From contig JAJECK010000119.1 of assembly GCA_022822085.1 (NCBI GenBank), positions 1 through 45,274 on the forward strand: DNA of 45,274 nucleotides, read 5' to 3'. This DNA is from Candidatus Poribacteria bacterium. GTDB taxonomy: Bacteria; Poribacteria; WGA-4E; WGA-3G. The position numbers were made by a program, and so were the translations under genes. Under the pieces are notes generated by a model. That model was not told the origin of the DNA, searched no databases, and saw only the letters and a program-made list of their open reading frames with translations. Positions 11,338 through 37,353 of this stretch are shown here, one piece after another. The number at the start of each line of letters is the position of its first letter. Positions within the stretch are counted from its first letter, which is position 1.

Positions 11338-12264
11338 TTAATTTTGTAATTCACTATAATAATCGGACAGTTTTTCAAGAAGTGAAAGTTGTTCAGCGCG
11401 TTCTACAGGTTCCTCATGTAAGTGTTTTGGTGTAAAATTTGATACGAACGCTTCCAGTATTGGTTTCCTATTTTCCTCTTTAGCACCAATATGATAAAAG
11501 TGCTCTTTGGTTGACACATGAAATTCCGACCATAACGCCTCAAGGAATACATTTTTCCTGTATTGATTGCTATGCCAAGTGGATAAAATAAATCTACAAG
11601 GTGATTTACTCAGTATCTCAAATAGATATTTTTCATTTTCTTCGTCCCAGCTATCATAATGATCCACGTGCCGTCCAACATAGGGTGGATCACAGTAGAG
11701 AAAATCATCATCGGTTATGTCTTTAAGTGTATCTTTATAGTCTTGACAGATAAATGACCAATTAGAATGCCTTGAGATAATCTGAACGTAGTCAACTTGG
11801 TTCACAATCTTTGTAATATATGCCTTGGAAAACCGTTGTGGTTTAGGACCGAAAGGGACATTAAAACCTCCTCTACGATTGAACCGAATCATACCATTGA
11901 AGCAGCATCGATTTAAAAATAGAAAATCTAAAGGATCATGTGTTTTATTAAAACGTTCTCTAACTTCATAGTAGTAATCTTTACCAAATTTGGATAATAT
12001 TTCACCGTTTTGTTCAAGGAAACTTCTTACTTTCAATCCATCAATTTTTCCTTTTGCTATCGCGTTATAGAAGTTTATTAAATGTGGATTGCTATCTGCA
12101 AAGATCGCGTTGCCTGGCATTATATTAAAACCAACAACACCTGAACCCATAAATGGTTCAATCCATCTGCCTTTAAATGACCAGTCCACAATTCGATTGA
12201 TGAAGGGAACAAGTTTGCTTTTAATTCCTTGACATTTAATCGGAGGAATCATAACTTTTTTCAT
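11338..12264 (-). CDS. DNA adenine-N6 methyltransferase, M.EcoRV family
   Basis: 308 residues of the alpha class (D12/Dam fold). Motif X is PPIKCQGIKSKLVPFI (7-22), motif I EPFMGSGVV (36-44), motif IV CDPPYVGRHVD (191-201). Long blocks agree with M.EcoRV as I remember it, for example FFLNR-type LDFLFLNR, CFNGMIRFN, GGFNVPF, ITKI.NQVD, and TKEHFYHIGA near the C-terminus. The predicted job is methylation of the first adenine-containing site of GATATC, protecting the host against the endonuclease encoded just upstream. The ATG overlaps the endonuclease stop (12261-12264), so the pair is one operon with endonuclease first. C-terminal residues after about 285 (EQLSLLEKLSDYYSEL) extend past the usual end. 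Site specificity is inference from homology. Confidence 0.92.
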   Translation of the reverse strand: MKKVMIPPIKCQGIKSKLVPFINRIVDWSFKGRWIEPFMGSGVVGFNIMPGNAIFADSNPHLINFYNAIAKGKIDGLKVRSFLEQNGEILSKFGKDYYYEVRERFNKTHDPLDFLFLNRCCFNGMIRFNRRGGFNVPFGPKPQRFSKAYITKIVNQVDYVQIISRHSNWSFICQDYKDTLKDITDDDFLYCDPPYVGRHVDHYDSWDEENEKYLFEILSKSPCRFILSTWHSNQYRKNVFLEALWSEFHVSTKEHFYHIGAKEENRKPILEAFVSNFTPKHLHEEPVERAEQLSLLEKLSDYYSELQN

Positions 12265-13022
12265 TGGTATCTTCTCCTCAGGCCTATTTTTCTTGCTTTA
12301 GGTACAATTAATCGTTCGTCACCACCCCTATATGATACAAATTCTTGCAAGTTCCTAATCTGTTTTGTTTTTCCACCATCTTCAGTGATAGTAATTTTAC
12401 CATAGTTCATCCAATAATCATCAAACCATTTCTCACCCAATTCAGAGAACATTCCACGGCCTGAGATTATATCATCAATTTTATTTATACTTCCGATGTT
12501 CGCAGTATTACCACTACCACTTTTGTCACTCGCAATCTTCCATTTTTCAGCGACAAAGAATCTAAAGTCCTTTATAACGGAAGATATTGAATGAAGTTCA
12601 TCAAGACCGTAACTACGAGTCTCATCTATTTCATTTATGTGTCTATTGTAAATTATACCCAAACAGAAATGTCCTTGGTATTGACTATAGGGGAACTGAA
12701 TATTTTTTGAACTTTCTCTATTCACAAAGTAGTTACCGTGAGAACCTAATGTAAAACCATTGCAAAACTCTGGATAATCCGGTAGACGGTATGTTGTTTT
12801 AAAATCAACAGCGTATTTTATATTTTCGTTTTTAGCATGCATGAAAGAAATATCTGGATAGTAATTCTGATGTTCAGCCAGTACTACTCGGTATCCTGTA
12901 TCTTCAGCGAAACTGAGAATACGTGGGAAAAGATGTATTTCAAGAATTTTTGATATTATTTTCGTATCTGAAGAAATTGTGTAGATATTTCGGCATACAT
13001 AATAAAACCCTTGATACGCCAT
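12261..13022 (-). CDS. EcoRV-type type II restriction endonuclease, main frame (N-terminus in another frame)
   Basis: 253 codons in this frame. It carries the EcoRV catalytic triad of the PD-(D/E)xK fold: YYPDISF with D57, then AVDFKTTY with D73 and K75. The DNA-reading loop is SGSGNTANIGS, near-identical to the EcoRV recognition loop. SSDTKIISKI, KNIQFPYSQYQGH and FDDYWMNY also line up with EcoRV. Cleavage at GATATC is therefore predicted. The first six codons of this frame are probably not the true start: the EcoRV-like N-terminal helix lies upstream in the +1-related frame (12956-13117), and joining the two by a -1 shift at 13004-13010 gives a 285-residue protein that aligns without a gap across the junction. 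As it stands the gene is frameshifted, or depends on ribosomal slippage, or carries a one-base assembly error. Confidence 0.9.
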   Translation of the reverse strand: MAYQGFYYVCRNIYTISSDTKIISKILEIHLFPRILSFAEDTGYRVVLAEHQNYYPDISFMHAKNENIKYAVDFKTTYRLPDYPEFCNGFTLGSHGNYFVNRESSKNIQFPYSQYQGHFCLGIIYNRHINEIDETRSYGLDELHSISSVIKDFRFFVAEKWKIASDKSGSGNTANIGSINKIDDIISGRGMFSELGEKWFDDYWMNYGKITITEDGGKTKQIRNLQEFVSYRGGDERLIVPKARKIGLRRRYQ

Positions 13023-13117
13023 TGACCGTCGTCTGTGCTTACATGTTGATCAAGTGATGAAACGAATTGAGTCAGTGATTGAAAAAACTTCTCTTTAGTT
13101 TGAATGTCTCGACTCAT
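12956..13117 (-). CDS. N-terminal frame of the EcoRV-type endonuclease (53 codons before stop)
   Basis: Starts at the ATG 13115-13117 with AGGA about 6 bases upstream, a better start than the ATG at 13022. It reads MSRDIQTKEKFFQSLTQF, later DGQWRIKGF, and stops at 12956-12958. EcoRV begins with a similar helix followed by a G-I/F segment ten residues before I-Y-x-x-x-S-D-T-K. Codons AAG GGT TTT ATT contain the heptamer G GGT TTT (13010-13004), which fits the X XXY YYZ slippery pattern. Slipping back one base yields KGFYYVCRNIYTISSDTK, with exactly the EcoRV spacing. One extra T in the TTTT run would also restore the frame. Confidence 0.7.
   Translation of the reverse strand: MSRDIQTKEKFFQSLTQFVSSLDQHVSTDDGQWRIKGFIMYAEISTQFLQIRK
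13004..13010 (-). other. Slippery-type heptamer GGGTTTT at the endonuclease frame junction
   Basis: Zero-frame codons GGT TTT preceded by G. Tandem re-pairing on GGG TTT moves into the frame that encodes the catalytic domain. No strong downstream stem-loop was found by eye, so a lost T is an equally good explanation. Confidence 0.4.
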
Positions 13118-13170: not shown

Positions 13171-13995
13171 TTAATACTCTCCACGAGAGTTCCAACCGGG
13201 ATATTGCTCTTCCAATGCTTGTAACGTTTGTGGTGTGTAATATGGATGTCCTGCAGGTGGAAAGCGAAATACTTCGCGTTCTTCCGCTGTCAATATCCCA
13301 ATAAACTTAGCGAATGTTGCGTGTCGTCCTTTGTCCGTATAGTGCCGAAAGCCTTCCCAATAATGATCTGCACGCCCTAATCCGAATCCCCAAGTATAAC
13401 GCTGTCCATCTTCACGAAGATAATCACTTGCAGAATGATATGTATAATTACTGAAGATACATAAAGTGCCAGCAGTGCATACAAGCGGTTCGTAGTGGGA
13501 GGTGTCCTCTCCATACTCGGTAGCAAGTAATCTCAACGGTGCCTGATCTTCTTCTACATCCTCAAGGTGCACCCAAAATACAAGTTGTCCGAATTCTGGT
13601 GCTGACTGTGACTTCGGTAGTAACGAGTTATTTCCATTATCAATATGTAGACCGCTTGCATCACTTCCAACACCACCACCTTTAAATCCAGGATAACGTG
13701 CAATCATACACCCTGCCCGGAAGTGAATGTGTTCAGTTTTAAATATCTTACGTGCGAAACTCCATGCTTCATTATCCACGATCGCCTGTAATAAAACTAT
13801 TTCTGACGATGGAAATTCAGTTAAAATCGCTCTCCCATTCGGTGGATTTTCTTTTACTTCTTCCCAAGTTGGGAGCACGCGACGTTGGGCAGCTTGCATT
13901 TCAGTTAACTGATCTCCAGAATAGTAATCGGGTACAATTATATATCCTTTAGTTGTGAATTCTTTAAGATGTGCATCAGTTAGTTTTCTTGGCAT
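13171..13995 (-). CDS. Phytanoyl-CoA dioxygenase family protein (PhyH-like)
   Basis: 274 residues from the ATG at 13995, chosen for GGAGG 6 bases upstream; the frame runs on to 14124 but that part overlaps tRNA-Asn and a terminator. This is a non-haem Fe(II)/2-oxoglutarate oxygenase of the double-stranded beta-helix fold. The iron triad is H117-x-D119 (GLHIDNGNNS) and H187 (NYTYHSASDY), with R199 (QRYTWGF) as 2-oxoglutarate anchor. The substrate cannot be predicted; the family hydroxylates small molecules as diverse as ectoine, phytanoyl-CoA and quinolines. It is transcribed downstream of tRNA-Asn but separated by a terminator. A second, dissimilar member is at 39221-39994. Confidence 0.88.
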   Translation of the reverse strand: MPRKLTDAHLKEFTTKGYIIVPDYYSGDQLTEMQAAQRRVLPTWEEVKENPPNGRAILTEFPSSEIVLLQAIVDNEAWSFARKIFKTEHIHFRAGCMIARYPGFKGGGVGSDASGLHIDNGNNSLLPKSQSAPEFGQLVFWVHLEDVEEDQAPLRLLATEYGEDTSHYEPLVCTAGTLCIFSNYTYHSASDYLREDGQRYTWGFGLGRADHYWEGFRHYTDKGRHATFAKFIGILTAEEREVFRFPPAGHPYYTPQTLQALEEQYPGWNSRGEY

Positions 13996-14045
13996 ATCTA
14001 CCTCCGTTGGAAAATATTGAAATTTCTGAAAGAAGATACTTAAAT

Positions 14046-14089
14046 AAAAATGCTGACGAACATGAGATACAAAGTCCGTCAGCATTTTT
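14046..14089 (-). terminator. Terminator after tRNA-Asn
   Basis: A perfect 13-bp stem, AAAAATGCTGACG (14046-14058) against CGTCAGCATTTTT (14077-14089), with an 18-base loop. In the minus strand the T-run ends the tRNA transcript 6 bases after the mature 3' end. The A-run on the other side makes it bidirectional in principle. Confidence 0.85.
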
Positions 14090-14094
14090 CTAAA

Positions 14095-14167
14095 CTCCCC
14101 CAGACGGACTCGAACCGCCGACACGATGGTTAACAGCCATCTGCTCTACCAACTGAGCTATGAGGGA
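14095..14167 (-). tRNA. tRNA-Asn (GTT)
   Basis: 73 nt. The acceptor stem is TCCCTCA (14167-14161) with TGGGGGA (14102-14096), including one G-U-type pair, and discriminator G at 14095. The D-loop is AGCTCAGTTGGTAGAGC, the anticodon GTT is at 14134-14132 within CTGTTAACC, and the T-arm has GGTTCGAGTCC. CCA is not encoded. Its own promoter lies upstream and a strong terminator follows. Confidence 0.95.
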
Positions 14168-31412: not shown

Positions 31413-31595
31413 TTACTCATCGAGTTTGTCTTCCAACTCAACGGATTTTTGCTTGTTCTTTGTAAGTTCTTTTTCTGTAATTCGCAGTTTTAAATGAAGA
31501 TACAAAAACTCTCCTTCAACAAGCCTATATTCACCTCGGTTTGGCTTTTCAAGTTCTCCACGATTTACTAAAGATGCTAAATCTTGTTTACTATT
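31413..31595 (-). pseudogene. Gene tail, frame-displaced after the helicase-nuclease
   Basis: Directly after the stop of the helicase-nuclease half (31591), a second frame reads SKQDLASLVNRGELEKPNRG then EYRLVEGEFLYLHLKLRI and a lysine/glutamate-rich coiled end, stopping at 31413-31415. It has no start codon. L-V-N/E-R-G-E-L-E-K-P looks like a winged-helix tail. It is either a remnant of another gene or a second frameshifted extension of the helicase. Confidence 0.35.
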
Positions 31596-33228
31596 TCACT
31601 GTAGTAAGTACCAACGAACCAGCTTTATCTGTCAACTCACCGCGTTCAATCATTTTATAAATTATGCCTTCAATTTCGTCTTGCATGTCCCAATTAACCT
31701 TTTTGAAACCAAATAACCTACAAGTTGCGCGAGGTAAATCGTCTTGTTCTATGCCACAAGATTCCGATACAATCAACTTGATTGCTTCTTGTATTTCTTC
31801 AGGTGCAATAAGCTTAAACTTGCGTGAAGTATATGGAAGTTCACTACGATCTCGCACAGTGATATTTTTTTGTCCAGTCCAATAGAGAAATGTCTCATAC
31901 AGAGATGTTTCTTTGATCTGAATACTTTCAGATTGAGCTCCTTGTGTCGCAGCAAATTTAACTGCGTCTTGAATACGATTGCCGACCTTTTTGAACCCCG
32001 CAGCATTTGCTATGCGTTTTGCTACTACATTTATATGTACAGGGCTCTCAACTTCAACAACACGTTGAATCCAATCCATCATAGAGTCGTACGGAACCGC
32101 ATGTAAATCAAGCCCATTGGTAGAAATAGATAGTTCAGCGAGTTTATACTTTTCCGCAAGTGAATTTGGCTTTGGTTCAGGGATTGGGTCACCAGTTGCG
32201 TCAACTTCTGTTTCTGATTCATCCTTATCTTCATTGGAATCATGATTATTAGTTTCTGGAGTTTTGCCAATAGGGAAGGGAATGTGTGCCTTAGCTGCCT
32301 CAATTGCTTCAGCTGCTTTTTTGAGTTCGCGGTCTGGAAATCTAAACCAATCGGTACTCCAAATACGATGAATACGCCAACCCAATCCTTCAAGTACATC
32401 CTGCCTAATTCGATCTCTATCGCGAGCTGATTGAGCACTATGGTAAGTTGCTCCGTCACACTCAATTCCCAACAAATAACGTCCTGGGCGTTCAGGATCC
32501 TTAACCGCAAGGTCAATGAAATAACCAGCAGAACCAATCTGATGATCAATTTCATAGCCGCGGCTCCGTAAGACATCTGCAACCTCTACCTCAAAAGGAG
32601 AGTCTGGCGGTTTGCCAGTCGGTACAGGCATGTCAAGGTCAAGTTCACCAGTTTGTGCATATTTTAAGTAACGCTTAAGTACTTCAACACCGCGGGCATT
32701 GGTCCTACTAAGATCAATATCATCAGCAGTCAAGTTAGTAAAAACTTCACAACGTTGCCGTGATCGCGTAATCAAAACGTTCAGTCTTCTTTCTCCACCA
32801 TCCCTACCGAGGGGACCGAAGTTCATCGTAAGTTTCCCATTAGCATCTCGTCCATAACCAATACTAATAAAAATAATATCTCGTTCATCACCTTGAACGT
32901 TTTCCAAATTTTTGACAAAAAATGGTTCTTCAGGATGCACATTGAAGAAAGTATCCTCACATGATGGATCCTCTTGGCGCAGGAGTTCAAGCTGGTCTTG
33001 AATTGCTTGCATTTGTGCAGTGCTAAAAGTCGCTACCCCAAGTGTCAAATCAGGACGCGTGCGCGCGTGTTCCATGACTTTTTCTGCGACTATTTTGGCT
33101 TCTTCCGGATTGCTTCTACTGCCCCCACGGTCATAAGCAGTATTTGATAGGTAATGATAAACTAACCCAACCTCTTTCTTCGCGGCATCAGGACTCGGAA
33201 AGAGTTGAAGCGTTGTCATAGAATTCAA
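31591..33228 (-). CDS. SF1 helicase C-terminal half with REase-like (Vsr/MTES_1575-type) and DUF3320 domains
   Basis: 545 codons, really the second half of the protein that begins at 36337. It opens in the middle of a conserved stretch (LFPSPDAAKKEVGLVYHYL). Helicase motifs V and VI are VKNLENVQGDERDIIFISIG and RRLNVLITRSRQRCEVFTNL. Residues ~205-310 are a PD-(D/E)xK nuclease related to Vsr: SPFEVEVADVLRSRGYEID, YFIDLAV, LLGIECDGATYHS and RDRIRQDVLEGLGWRIHRIWS. A DUF3320-like domain follows from about 375 (DLHAVPYDSMMDWIQRVV). The 33188-33228 overlap with the first half and the shared homology show a frameshift in one ancestral ORF. The order DUF4011, helicase, Vsr, DUF3320 is that of large defence-associated proteins such as Hhe. 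Confidence 0.85.
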   Translation of the reverse strand: MNSMTTLQLFPSPDAAKKEVGLVYHYLSNTAYDRGGSRSNPEEAKIVAEKVMEHARTRPDLTLGVATFSTAQMQAIQDQLELLRQEDPSCEDTFFNVHPEEPFFVKNLENVQGDERDIIFISIGYGRDANGKLTMNFGPLGRDGGERRLNVLITRSRQRCEVFTNLTADDIDLSRTNARGVEVLKRYLKYAQTGELDLDMPVPTGKPPDSPFEVEVADVLRSRGYEIDHQIGSAGYFIDLAVKDPERPGRYLLGIECDGATYHSAQSARDRDRIRQDVLEGLGWRIHRIWSTDWFRFPDRELKKAAEAIEAAKAHIPFPIGKTPETNNHDSNEDKDESETEVDATGDPIPEPKPNSLAEKYKLAELSISTNGLDLHAVPYDSMMDWIQRVVEVESPVHINVVAKRIANAAGFKKVGNRIQDAVKFAATQGAQSESIQIKETSLYETFLYWTGQKNITVRDRSELPYTSRKFKLIAPEEIQEAIKLIVSESCGIEQDDLPRATCRLFGFKKVNWDMQDEIEGIIYKMIERGELTDKAGSLVLTTVK

Positions 33229-36200
33229 GATTTGACACAGTAATTAATGATTCGTGTCGACTGCGATAGTGCCAACGTAACATGCGTTCTGGCGAGTTCT
33301 GAGCACTAAACAAACCAAGAATACTCTCTGTATCAGCTGGTATGTTTTCTTCTGTGTCATCAACATCATCCTCTGCTATGTGTTTATCAAAGAAAGAGGT
33401 CGGTGGTAGTTGTTGAGTATCACCCACTACAACTGTTTGTTTGCCTCGGACAATTGATCCGAAAGCATCAACAGGTTTTACTTGGCTTGCTTCGTCAAAA
33501 ACCACTAAGTCGAAGTCAACGCTTTTCGGTGGTATAAATGTCGCTACAGAGAGCGGACTCATCATAAATACTGGTTTAATTGCTTGTATTGCATTTCCTG
33601 CTTTAGCCATAAGTTGACGAATTGGTAGATGCTTCCGCTTTTTTTGAAATTCACGCATCAGTACTCCTAACTGTCCGCTGGATGATTGACGCTGGGGCAA
33701 ATGTCCCCAATGTTCATAAGCAATTTTAGCCTTATTGTATTCAAATGAGATGTGATCTAACTCTTTGAACTTTTCTACAATATGCTGATGTGTCTCGCTA
33801 CTAAAACCCGCGAGAATTGGTCGTTCTTGCATGACCGTCTCAATCCTTGCGTTGTACCACGTCTGTTGGAGTAAATCTGATAAATATTCTCCCGCTTCTG
33901 ACCATTCATTTGCGACCTTTACAATTTCATTGAAATCTTTATCCCTTAATGCCTCAACCTGGTGATTATATGAAACCATATCCTGGAGTCTGTCAGGTTC
34001 AGTCTCCCAAGATTTAAAGATTTTTACCTGTTCAGTAAATGGAAGATGTTTTAATCCATCATCACTTCCAAAACGCACTTTTTCATCAAGTTCAATTTTT
34101 TCAATCACCGTTTGAAGTAGATCCGGATAGCTACACAGCAGTTCTTCAACATTCACAAGCAATGCTTTAAGTTCTTCCAAATTCGGATTTGACGCAAGAT
34201 ATGTAACAACAACTTCGGGTAAATCATTGTTTGCTATCGATTTGTGCAGTGTTGAAAGATATATTGTGATCTCTCGTAGTTGATCCCAATTTGAGGATTG
34301 CCCTTGCCAGTGTGTACCAAATAGTTCTTGTCCGATTTCTTGTATCTGTTCAAGCTGGGGCAATTCACGCTGCACTTCAAGAATCGCATCAACGATACCG
34401 AGTCGGACATCATGGGTTTTGGGTAGTAGTTGTGGTTGTGAGCATAAACCTTTGAGTTCATTATGGGCACGTCGATATTTCCCCGAAAGTATTCGCCACC
34501 ACTTATCACCATACGCAGCAAGCATTTGCCGGATCTCAACCACGTTTTGTTCCCATGCTTCAGGTATAAGGATATTATCATGTGCGTTATGGAGCTTGCT
34601 TAACTTTTCTCCTGCGTTTAGTCCTAATTCTAAATCATTTTTATGTGTTCTCCATTCCGTTGACTGCACAGCAACACCTGATAATTCTGGTGCATCTAAA
34701 ATGTGACGCGCTGCGCGGATGAGACTTTCAACCCCCTCACAAGTATCTGGGACAGCAAGTTTAAGGTGCTGTGCAAGTTTTTCAGAGGAATCCTTGAGTT
34801 CTGAAACTCTTTCGTACGCTTCTGTTGCTGCCCGTTTCAGCGGTTCTCTATCAGTAGGAAGAAAGACCTTACAAAGACTTCCCCAAAACGGGTGTTTTTT
34901 GGGTATACCCATCCGCTTAAGGAGTGTTTGGAATTCTTTAGTAAGTTCCACGCCATCTCTAAAATCAGATGTTGAATGTTGAAAATCTATTGAGGCTAAA
35001 GTCGGTAGTTCCTTCCCTGAGAGGAGACGTTGTGTAACTAAAAGTACCCCATACGCTTGATAAGGTGTAATACCACTTTCGCCAATTGGTTTGTTGACTG
35101 CTTCACAGTAACTGTTCAAACGCTTACGATTACTGAGAAGAAGATCCAATTCTTGCTTTAGGTCTGTTAATTTAGGCTCACTGGTATTAAGTATTCTTTT
35201 TAGTTCATCAGCTACGGCTTTTTTGTTCATCTTATGACTATGCAGTTCCAAACAGGCGTTCCCAAGTCCCACTTTGTCCAAATTACGCTTGACCACTTCC
35301 AAAGCTGCCATCTTCTCAGCAACAAAAAGCACACGTTTCCCTTTCGCTATAGATGCAGCAATCAAATTGGTAATGGTTTGGGATTTACCTGTGCCAGGAG
35401 GTCCCTGAATAACGAGATTTCGTCCTTCATTTACATCATGGATAGCCAATGCCTGTGAACTGTCAGCATTCACTACGTGGTGCGTATTATCGGGAGTAAG
35501 GTGTTGGTCAACGTTGGGGTCGCTGTCATCAATGGATGGGGCTGATTCTTGGAATCCGTTTACGAGCACTGAATCTAATATAGGATGTTCAGAGAGGGTA
35601 TTATCAGGCCAATTATTAACGTCTAAATCACAGTACATCAGAAACTTGGCAAATGAGAAAAAACCGAGTGCAACCGCTGACTCATCTACTGACCATCGTT
35701 TAGCACTACCAATTGCCTCATTTACTTCTTCAAAATATTTTAGAATATTGGACTGATTAAGGTCATCCACTTCGGGGAGATCTGGTAATTGAATACGAAA
35801 CTCAGTTTTCAGTTTTTCTTGAAGTGAAAGATTCGTTCCAATATCTTCCTCTGTGTACTCAACTCGAAAATTAGCACGCACACTCGTTCGGTTGAGTTCC
35901 ACTGGAATCATAATTAGTGGAGCATGCCGTGGTATTTCGCTTGATTCAGATTCATACCATTTAAGCATCCCAAGTGCCAGATAGAGGGTCGTCACTCCCT
36001 GTTCTTCAATTGCCGTTCGCTCCGTATACTCAGTATTCCGTAAACGCTTTTGAAGTTCAGTAGAGGAATGCTTTGTCTGAAGTTTAGTATCGGTATACCG
36101 CTCAGGATCATGTTCCGCTTCATCTTCAAACAGAAGAGAACTATCATCTTCATCTTTTGGTAGGAAAGACATAGTTTTCTTATTTTGAACGAGTATCTGA

Positions 36201-36337
36201 TAAATATCTGATGGAGATTCATCAACAATCTCAACGCCTCGCGCCTTGAGAGGTTTATAGTTGATCAATGGGTTACGCAAGGTTAAGTCAAGCAGTTCAG
36301 CGCGAGCTTTATCTAATTTCGTTTGTACAGAATTCAT
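33188..36337 (-). CDS. DUF4011 + SF1 helicase N-terminal half (frameshifted from 31591-33228)
   Basis: 1049 codons. The N-terminal 230 residues are DUF4011 (RAELLDLTLRNPLINY, LYLALGMLKWYE, APLIMIPVEL). Walker A is GPPGTGKS (312-319), motif Ia FVAEKMAALEVV, Walker B/motif II DLVVFDEASQ, motif III GDTQQLPP, motif IV-like RMLRWHYRSRHESLI. The reading breaks at EFYDNASTLSES and a stop, while homologues continue into F-P-S-P-D. The next half does exactly that in the frame one base later. Restoring the frame needs removal of one base or addition of two near 33195-33215. The product would act on DNA as an ATP-driven translocase feeding the nuclease. Whether the split gene is functional, as two polypeptides, cannot be told. 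Confidence 0.88.
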   Translation of the reverse strand: MNSVQTKLDKARAELLDLTLRNPLINYKPLKARGVEIVDESPSDIYQILVQNKKTMSFLPKDEDDSSLLFEDEAEHDPERYTDTKLQTKHSSTELQKRLRNTEYTERTAIEEQGVTTLYLALGMLKWYESESSEIPRHAPLIMIPVELNRTSVRANFRVEYTEEDIGTNLSLQEKLKTEFRIQLPDLPEVDDLNQSNILKYFEEVNEAIGSAKRWSVDESAVALGFFSFAKFLMYCDLDVNNWPDNTLSEHPILDSVLVNGFQESAPSIDDSDPNVDQHLTPDNTHHVVNADSSQALAIHDVNEGRNLVIQGPPGTGKSQTITNLIAASIAKGKRVLFVAEKMAALEVVKRNLDKVGLGNACLELHSHKMNKKAVADELKRILNTSEPKLTDLKQELDLLLSNRKRLNSYCEAVNKPIGESGITPYQAYGVLLVTQRLLSGKELPTLASIDFQHSTSDFRDGVELTKEFQTLLKRMGIPKKHPFWGSLCKVFLPTDREPLKRAATEAYERVSELKDSSEKLAQHLKLAVPDTCEGVESLIRAARHILDAPELSGVAVQSTEWRTHKNDLELGLNAGEKLSKLHNAHDNILIPEAWEQNVVEIRQMLAAYGDKWWRILSGKYRRAHNELKGLCSQPQLLPKTHDVRLGIVDAILEVQRELPQLEQIQEIGQELFGTHWQGQSSNWDQLREITIYLSTLHKSIANNDLPEVVVTYLASNPNLEELKALLVNVEELLCSYPDLLQTVIEKIELDEKVRFGSDDGLKHLPFTEQVKIFKSWETEPDRLQDMVSYNHQVEALRDKDFNEIVKVANEWSEAGEYLSDLLQQTWYNARIETVMQERPILAGFSSETHQHIVEKFKELDHISFEYNKAKIAYEHWGHLPQRQSSSGQLGVLMREFQKKRKHLPIRQLMAKAGNAIQAIKPVFMMSPLSVATFIPPKSVDFDLVVFDEASQVKPVDAFGSIVRGKQTVVVGDTQQLPPTSFFDKHIAEDDVDDTEENIPADTESILGLFSAQNSPERMLRWHYRSRHESLITVSNLEFYDNASTLSES

Positions 36338-36480: not shown

Positions 36481-36559
36481 AACTTATAGTTGTACCAGGC
36501 AATTACCGTCTACGACGATTCGATCGCTTGTAGGCGTTCAGCTAACCACAAGTTAACCA
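36481..36559. repeat. Direct repeat copy 1: antitoxin-tail duplicate
   Basis: About 79 bases that match 37562-37645 (with a few indels). In the minus strand it encodes MVNLWLAERLQAIESS and a stop, nearly the C-terminus of the antitoxin (LVNLWLAERLHAIESS). It overlaps the end of the methyltransferase gene, whose stop codon lies inside it. Confidence 0.8.
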
Positions 36560-37353
36560 TTAGAAATGGTATGATAATACTGAGGCAAAATTTCAATGCC
36601 AACAGAATTTCTTAATAACTTTTGAGCGACCTGACATGTCGTACCGGCACCCGCATACGGATCGAGTACCCAATCATTTTCTTTCGTAAACAACTTGATA
36701 AACCATTCAGGCAATGCCTTGGGAAAAACAGCACTATGTTTTCTATTTCCGGTCTCCGTTGCTAAGTGTAAAACATTCGTCGGATACGCCATTTTCCGAT
36801 CTAACCAATTTGAAACGTTCTTCCCAAATCCACTGCCGACTTTGGATGTATCTCGGCTCTGATCTGTTTCACTGAGCTTCTTCAACCGTTTCTCTGCCCA
36901 ATCCCCCATCGGTACCATAACCGCTTCTTGATACATATTGAACTTTTTGCTTTTATTAAACTGCAAACACCTTTCCCAAGCATCTCTGAATCGATTCGGC
37001 CATTTACCGGGATAGCAATTTTTCTTGTGCCAGACAAATTCCTCTGTCCATAACCATCCCTGTTTTTTCATCTCAAGTATTAACTCAAGCACGTAAGTGT
37101 GCCGTTCCCCGTTAACTGCTTGCTCTTTAATGTTCAAAATAAAGGTGCCAAATGGTTTGAGGACTCTTAAAAATTCTTTAGCACGAGGCATAAACCAATC
37201 GACATATTCATCAGGACTGATGCCCCCATAAGTTTTGGACCGCCGGTCCGCATACGGGGGAGAGGTCATAATCAGGTCAAATGAATCGATGTCAAAATCG
37301 GTAAGTACCTCTAAGCAATCCCCAAGATAAAAGTCTGTGTTTATCGCTGTCAT
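36553..37353 (-). CDS. Beta-class DNA methyltransferase (N4-cytosine or N6-adenine)
   Basis: 266 residues. Motif IV precedes motif I, the beta-class order: DLIMTSPPYADRR near residue 31, and VLDPYAGAGTTCQVA near residue 230. T-S-P-P-Y is commonest in N4-cytosine enzymes, D-P-P-Y in N6-adenine ones, so N4-cytosine is slightly favoured. KPFGTFILNIKE, LWTEEFVWHKKNCYPGKWPNRFRD and PTNVLHLATETGNRKHSAVFPKALPEW are the family's other blocks. No cognate endonuclease is adjacent, so it may be an orphan, or the modification arm of the neighbouring helicase-nuclease. The stop codon lies inside a copy of the antitoxin tail, and its last residues (TISNG) may be affected. Confidence 0.9.
   Translation of the reverse strand: MTAINTDFYLGDCLEVLTDFDIDSFDLIMTSPPYADRRSKTYGGISPDEYVDWFMPRAKEFLRVLKPFGTFILNIKEQAVNGERHTYVLELILEMKKQGWLWTEEFVWHKKNCYPGKWPNRFRDAWERCLQFNKSKKFNMYQEAVMVPMGDWAEKRLKKLSETDQSRDTSKVGSGFGKNVSNWLDRKMAYPTNVLHLATETGNRKHSAVFPKALPEWFIKLFTKENDWVLDPYAGAGTTCQVAQKLLRNSVGIEILPQYYHTISNG

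What the first reader, a model, noticed from the sequence alone, without database searches (positions are those of the whole stretch)
12261..13117. EcoRV-family endonuclease split by a -1 shift at GGGTTTT
The conserved EcoRV-like N-terminus (12956-13117, good ribosome site) and the catalytic body (12261-13022) are in different frames. A -1 slip at the heptamer G GGT TTT (13010-13004) joins them with exactly the residue spacing of EcoRV between the G-F/I and I-Y-x-x-x-S-D-T-K segments. Three readings compete: a lost T in the TTTT run that inactivates the enzyme, an assembly error, or ribosomal slippage or run-length switching that limits a toxic nuclease.
Basis: partly seen in the sequence, partly recalled or inferred. 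Interest (0 to 1): 0.72.

Follow-up and report, generated by a model that had tools for sequence, protein, structure and literature searches.

The report
Freshly broken EcoRV-type restriction enzyme gene
A sponge-type Poribacteria genome carries an EcoRV-like restriction enzyme gene knocked out of frame by one missing base beside an intact methylase gene, which is ordinary decay of a restriction system (or, less likely, an assembly error) and not a new way of reading genes.

Summary
A 53-residue N-terminal frame (12956-13117, minus) and a 253-residue body (12261-13022, minus) are the two halves of one EcoRV-family endonuclease (PF09233, E=2.7e-112), next to an intact D12-class adenine methylase. 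The heptamer G GGT TTT sits in phase where stated. The interpretation needs correcting. More than 80 relatives from many phyla read unbroken through GF[I/V]D. The window is one base short not in the T run but two codons further on (between 13001 and 13000), inside the codon of an Asp present in every relative examined. A -1 slip at the heptamer would give GFYY and lose that Asp. The heptamer is not conserved, occurs by chance in intact relatives, and has no RNA structure after it. The body shows no relaxed selection (dN/dS 0.06-0.08), so the break is very recent or is an assembly error. In the same bacterial family the methylase is often kept while the endonuclease is truncated, interrupted or absent, and a second defence nuclease in this window (31591-36337) is also frame-broken. 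Best reading: recent pseudogenisation of the endonuclease with the methylase retained. Assembly error cannot be excluded without reads. Programmed frameshifting is unlikely.

The parts
12956..13117 (-). N-terminal frame of the EcoRV-type endonuclease gene (53 aa, ends at an early stop)
   Evidence: 85% identical to residues 1-39 of intact relatives; AGGA ribosome site shared with relatives
12261..13022 (-). Catalytic body of the endonuclease in the -1 frame (253 aa ORF)
   Evidence: PF09233 E=2.7e-112; EcoRV structures E=5e-38; catalytic PD...D-x-K conserved
13000..13001 (-). Site of the lesion: one base fewer than in all relatives, in the codon of an Asp found in every relative examined
13004..13010 (-). 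Heptamer G GGT TTT; chance sequence, upstream of the lesion
   Evidence: not conserved; 20 in-phase copies in 537 ORFs of this genome
11338..12264 (-). Intact D12-class N6-adenine DNA methyltransferase, overlaps the endonuclease stop
   Evidence: PF02086 E=1.7e-46; PADLOC MTase_II; 83% identical to the partner methylase of intact systems
13171..14124 (-). Phytanoyl-CoA dioxygenase-like gene that flanks the system in relatives too
   Evidence: PF05721 E=1.7e-4; synteny

Best explanation
This is an EcoRV-type type II restriction-modification system whose endonuclease gene has very recently lost one base near codon 40. Translation from the proper start ends after 53 residues, so no full enzyme is made. 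The methyltransferase remains intact and should still methylate the EcoRV-type site (presumably GATATC), leaving a harmless solitary methylase. Shown: the split, the place of the lesion, the intact methylase, unbroken relatives, and repeated endonuclease loss with methylase retention in the same family. Inferred: that the lesion is in the living organism, that the enzyme is inactive, and the recognition site.
For: In relatives from many phyla the frame runs unbroken through GF[I/V]D, and the window alone is one base short there. The methylase is intact. Among relatives with a close methylase, the endonuclease is intact in 8, split over two contig ends in 1, broken in 3 (this window, G054 truncated, G055 with an inner stop and its start about 1 kb away), and absent in 8 with the methylase complete. 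G054 and G055 are 1- and 3-contig assemblies, so decay there is not fragmentation. The states are scattered over the methylase tree. A second defence nuclease in the window, PADLOC PDC-S37, is also frame-broken while most close relatives have one ORF of about 1,575-1,600 aa. In 166 matched places of this genome, besides that gene, only a transposase and one protease-like gene looked split.
Against: The body shows no relaxed selection (dN/dS 0.06-0.08 against a mean of 0.09 among intact genes) and no excess of private amino-acid changes. The break must therefore be recent, and a consensus error would look the same. No reads or second strain were available.
Confidence: 0.72

Rival explanations
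1. Assembly or consensus error: the organism has an intact endonuclease gene and the metagenome-assembled sequence dropped one base.
For: The body is under undiminished purifying selection. The genome is a 158-contig assembly of unknown read type. A second frame break lies on the same contig. Published cases of apparent frameshifts in restriction-modification genes that were sequencing errors are cited in PMC3488263.
Against: The lesion is not in a homopolymer. Frame breaks are rare in the rest of the sampled genome: 3 in 166 places and about 52,000 codons, one of them a transposase and one a second defence nuclease. Endonuclease loss is common in this family.
Confidence: 0.22
2. Programmed -1 ribosomal frameshifting at G GGT TTT makes a limited amount of full-length endonuclease.
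For: The heptamer has the X XXY YYZ form and is in phase within the overlap of the two frames. The body is conserved.
Against: All examined relatives are unbroken and the heptamer is not conserved; it appears by chance in two intact genes, L019 and L103. The slip product would read GFYY where every relative has GF[I/V]D. There is no 3' RNA structure (z 0.09). About 9% of 22-codon stretches in this genome hold some in-phase X XXY YYZ.
Confidence: 0.03
3. An N-terminally shortened enzyme is made from the ATG at 13022, or the gene is switched on and off by changes in run length.
For: The body frame opens with ATG at 13022 and stays open for 253 codons.
Against: That ATG has no evident ribosome site and is present out of frame in the intact relatives, where it is merely part of the Gln-Trp codons. 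The product would lack the first 32 residues and the conserved I-D. The run is only 4 T and is not where the base is missing.
Confidence: 0.03

Closest known systems
EcoRV restriction-modification system (R.EcoRV PF09233, M.EcoRV D12 class)
   Same: Endonuclease body with the EcoRV PD...D-x-K core and the SGSGNTxNIGSI segment, plus a D12-class adenine methylase beside it
   Different: The endonuclease frame is broken near codon 40; the gene order is dioxygenase-R-M on one strand with R and M overlapping by 4 bases
Solitary (orphan) methyltransferases left by decayed restriction-modification systems (reported by Seshasayee et al. as cited in PMC6471742; PADLOC oMTase)
   Same: Intact methylase next to a degraded endonuclease gene
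   Different: Here the endonuclease is one lesion away from intact, so it is caught very early
Solitary endonucleases with frameshifted partners (PMC3488263)
   Same: Single-frameshift genes in restriction-modification systems, some of them sequencing errors
   Different: There the methylase is the broken partner; here it is the endonuclease, the safe direction for the host

Membership tests
EcoRV endonuclease family (PF09233) | Profile match over the catalytic domain | tested here: met
   E=2.7e-112, profile positions 12-244 of 244
EcoRV endonuclease family (PF09233) | Catalytic PD...(D)xK residues and recognition-loop segment | tested here: met
   YPD...VDFKTTY and SGSGNTANIGSI aligned to EcoRV
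EcoRV endonuclease family (PF09233) | One unbroken frame | tested here: not met
   Frame changes between 13001 and 13000
EcoRV endonuclease family (PF09233) | Cleavage at GATATC | not testable with these tools
   GATATC is under-represented (0.55 of expected), but equally so (0.54) in G017, where searches found only an endonuclease fragment, so this does not decide
Programmed -1 frameshifting | In-phase slippery heptamer | tested here: met
   G GGT TTT at 13010-13004
Programmed -1 frameshifting | Stimulatory RNA structure after the heptamer | tested here: not met
   z-score 0.09
Programmed -1 frameshifting | Conservation of heptamer and split frame in relatives | tested here: not met
   All examined relatives unbroken here; exact in-phase heptamer in two intact genes only
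Programmed -1 frameshifting | Fusion product matches the unbroken homologues | tested here: not met
   Slip gives GFYY; every relative has GF[I/V]D
Phase variation by run length | Long simple-sequence tract at the frame change | tested here: not met
   Run of 4 T, not at the lesion
Orphan methyltransferase from a decayed R-M system | Intact methylase under purifying selection | tested here: met
   Open frame of 308 aa; dN/dS 0.07-0.17
Orphan methyltransferase from a decayed R-M system | No active cognate endonuclease elsewhere in the genome | tested here: inconclusive
   Only this copy found in the genome; activity not testable

The most novel reading that the evidence does not exclude
The heptamer lets a small share of ribosomes slip and make a low, tolerable amount of a still active EcoRV-type nuclease: a translational brake on a restriction enzyme.
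Probability: 0.03. Interest if true: 0.6.

Novelty: new member of a known kind. Interest (0 to 1): 0.14.

Why it matters
It shows a restriction system at the moment its endonuclease is lost while the methylase stays. In this Poribacteria family the methylase survives endonuclease loss in many species, which makes it a convenient natural series for asking why solitary methylases are kept. It gives no support for frameshift-controlled restriction.

Tried and rejected
Lost T in the TTTT run: rejected, because relatives have no longer T run there. Slippery site with a stimulatory structure: no structure found. GATATC avoidance as a sign of an active enzyme: not informative, since G017 with only an endonuclease fragment shows the same ratio. 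Long-standing pseudogene: rejected by dN/dS. The 80 loci kept by the collection scan are the best-scoring ones, so they lean towards intact copies. Structure prediction was not run because it could not separate the readings.

Full report
What is there. On the minus strand, 13117-12956 encodes MSRDIQTKEKFFQSLTQFVSSLDQHVSTDDGQWRIKGFIMYAEIS... and stops after 53 codons. The frame 13022-12261 encodes 253 residues containing VCRNIYTISSDTK and the whole catalytic domain. The second is an EcoRV-family endonuclease (PF09233, E=2.7e-112; EcoRV crystal-structure sequences, E=5e-38). The next gene, 12264-11338, is an intact D12-class adenine methyltransferase. The window is one contig of a 5.63 Mb, 158-contig genome. 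The nearest named relatives are Candidatus Poribacteria metagenome-assembled genomes.

Where the frame breaks. Three intact relatives from the same genus (L002, L003, L004; 86% identity to the body) have one frame of 286 codons with the same flanking genes. Aligned to them, the window is one base short between 13001 and 13000, after ...GGT TTT ATT. Relatives from many phyla (80 loci of genome contigs plus further Poribacteria, some fetched twice) all read GF[I/V]D without a break at this place. The T run in the window is not shortened: it consists of the third base of a Gly codon plus a Phe codon.

Why not ribosomal slippage. A -1 slip at G GGT TTT would give GFYY and lose an Asp found in every relative examined (EcoRV itself has Ser at that position by the spacing; that residue is from my own knowledge of the EcoRV sequence). 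The exact in-phase heptamer occurs in two intact relatives, L019 and L103, and not in the other genes. In this genome 20 of 537 long ORFs carry it in phase, and 9% of 22-codon stretches carry some X XXY YYZ. The 79 bases after it fold no better than shuffles (z 0.09). No paper linking programmed frameshifting to a restriction endonuclease was evident among the ten titles listed from the held library.

How old is the break. Pairwise dN/dS of the body against eight intact genes is 0.06-0.08, against a mean of 0.09 among the intact ones, at dS near 1. The window gene has 4 private amino-acid changes against 0-6 in the others. The break is therefore very young on this scale, or it is not in the organism at all.

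Context. The methylase was searched in the family and the upstream DNA examined. In the group whose methylase is at least about 78% identical to the window's, the endonuclease is intact in G007, G010, G015, G020, G028, G032, G035 and G041. It is split over two contig ends in G009. It is broken in G000 (this window), G054 (only about the first 100 residues left, running into the methylase start) and G055 (an inner stop, and its first residues displaced by about 1 kb). It is absent in G053, G033, G050, G039, G046, G023 and G043, where the dioxygenase gene lies directly before the methylase with only a short gap (under 70 bases), and in G006. A second, 60%-identical group shows the same: intact pairs in G026, G030, G040, G044 and G051; endonuclease fragments in G017, G034, G052 and G057; none in G001, G003 and G005. 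States are scattered over the methylase tree, but many branches have weak support and several 'absent' junctions look alike, so the number of independent losses is not fixed. Loss of the endonuclease with the methylase kept is the safe order for the cell and is a known route to solitary methylases (PMC6471742).

Real or assembly error. Proteins of the one-contig relative G017 were placed on 1.15 Mb of this genome. In 166 places and about 52,000 codons, three frame breaks appeared: a transposase, a protease-like gene, and the PDC-S37 defence gene in this same window. Breaks are thus rare and two of the three fall in dispensable genes, which favours real decay. But two on one 45 kb contig could also mean a poorly supported contig, and published frameshifts in such genes have included sequencing errors (PMC3488263). 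I put real recent inactivation at 0.72 and assembly error at 0.22.

Verdict. Observation confirmed; mechanism ordinary. It is a new example of a known kind, with low interest.

Noticed in passing
window 31591-36337 (-): A second defence gene, PADLOC PDC-S37 (DUF4011, helicase, MTES_1575 nuclease, DUF3320), is split into two frames near 33150-33210; most close relatives have one ORF of about 1,575-1,600 aa.
   Followed up: partly
window 36553-37353 (-): A second DNA methyltransferase (best PADLOC hits are type II MTases) next to the broken PDC-S37 gene; its partner, if any, was not sought.
   Followed up: no
L130, L131, L137, L138, L141, L142, L144: EcoRV-type methylase kept directly after the dioxygenase gene with no endonuclease; several junctions look alike, so one loss may have spread by recombination.
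   Followed up: partly
genome sample of G000 and G017: CATATG, GACGTC, AGCGCT and GGCGCC are strongly avoided (0.04-0.18 of expected) in both genomes, suggesting other long-lived restriction systems.
   Followed up: no
window 11338-12264 (-): The methylase has more private amino-acid changes (16) than its orthologues beside intact endonucleases (0-10), although its branch is also the longest.
   Followed up: no
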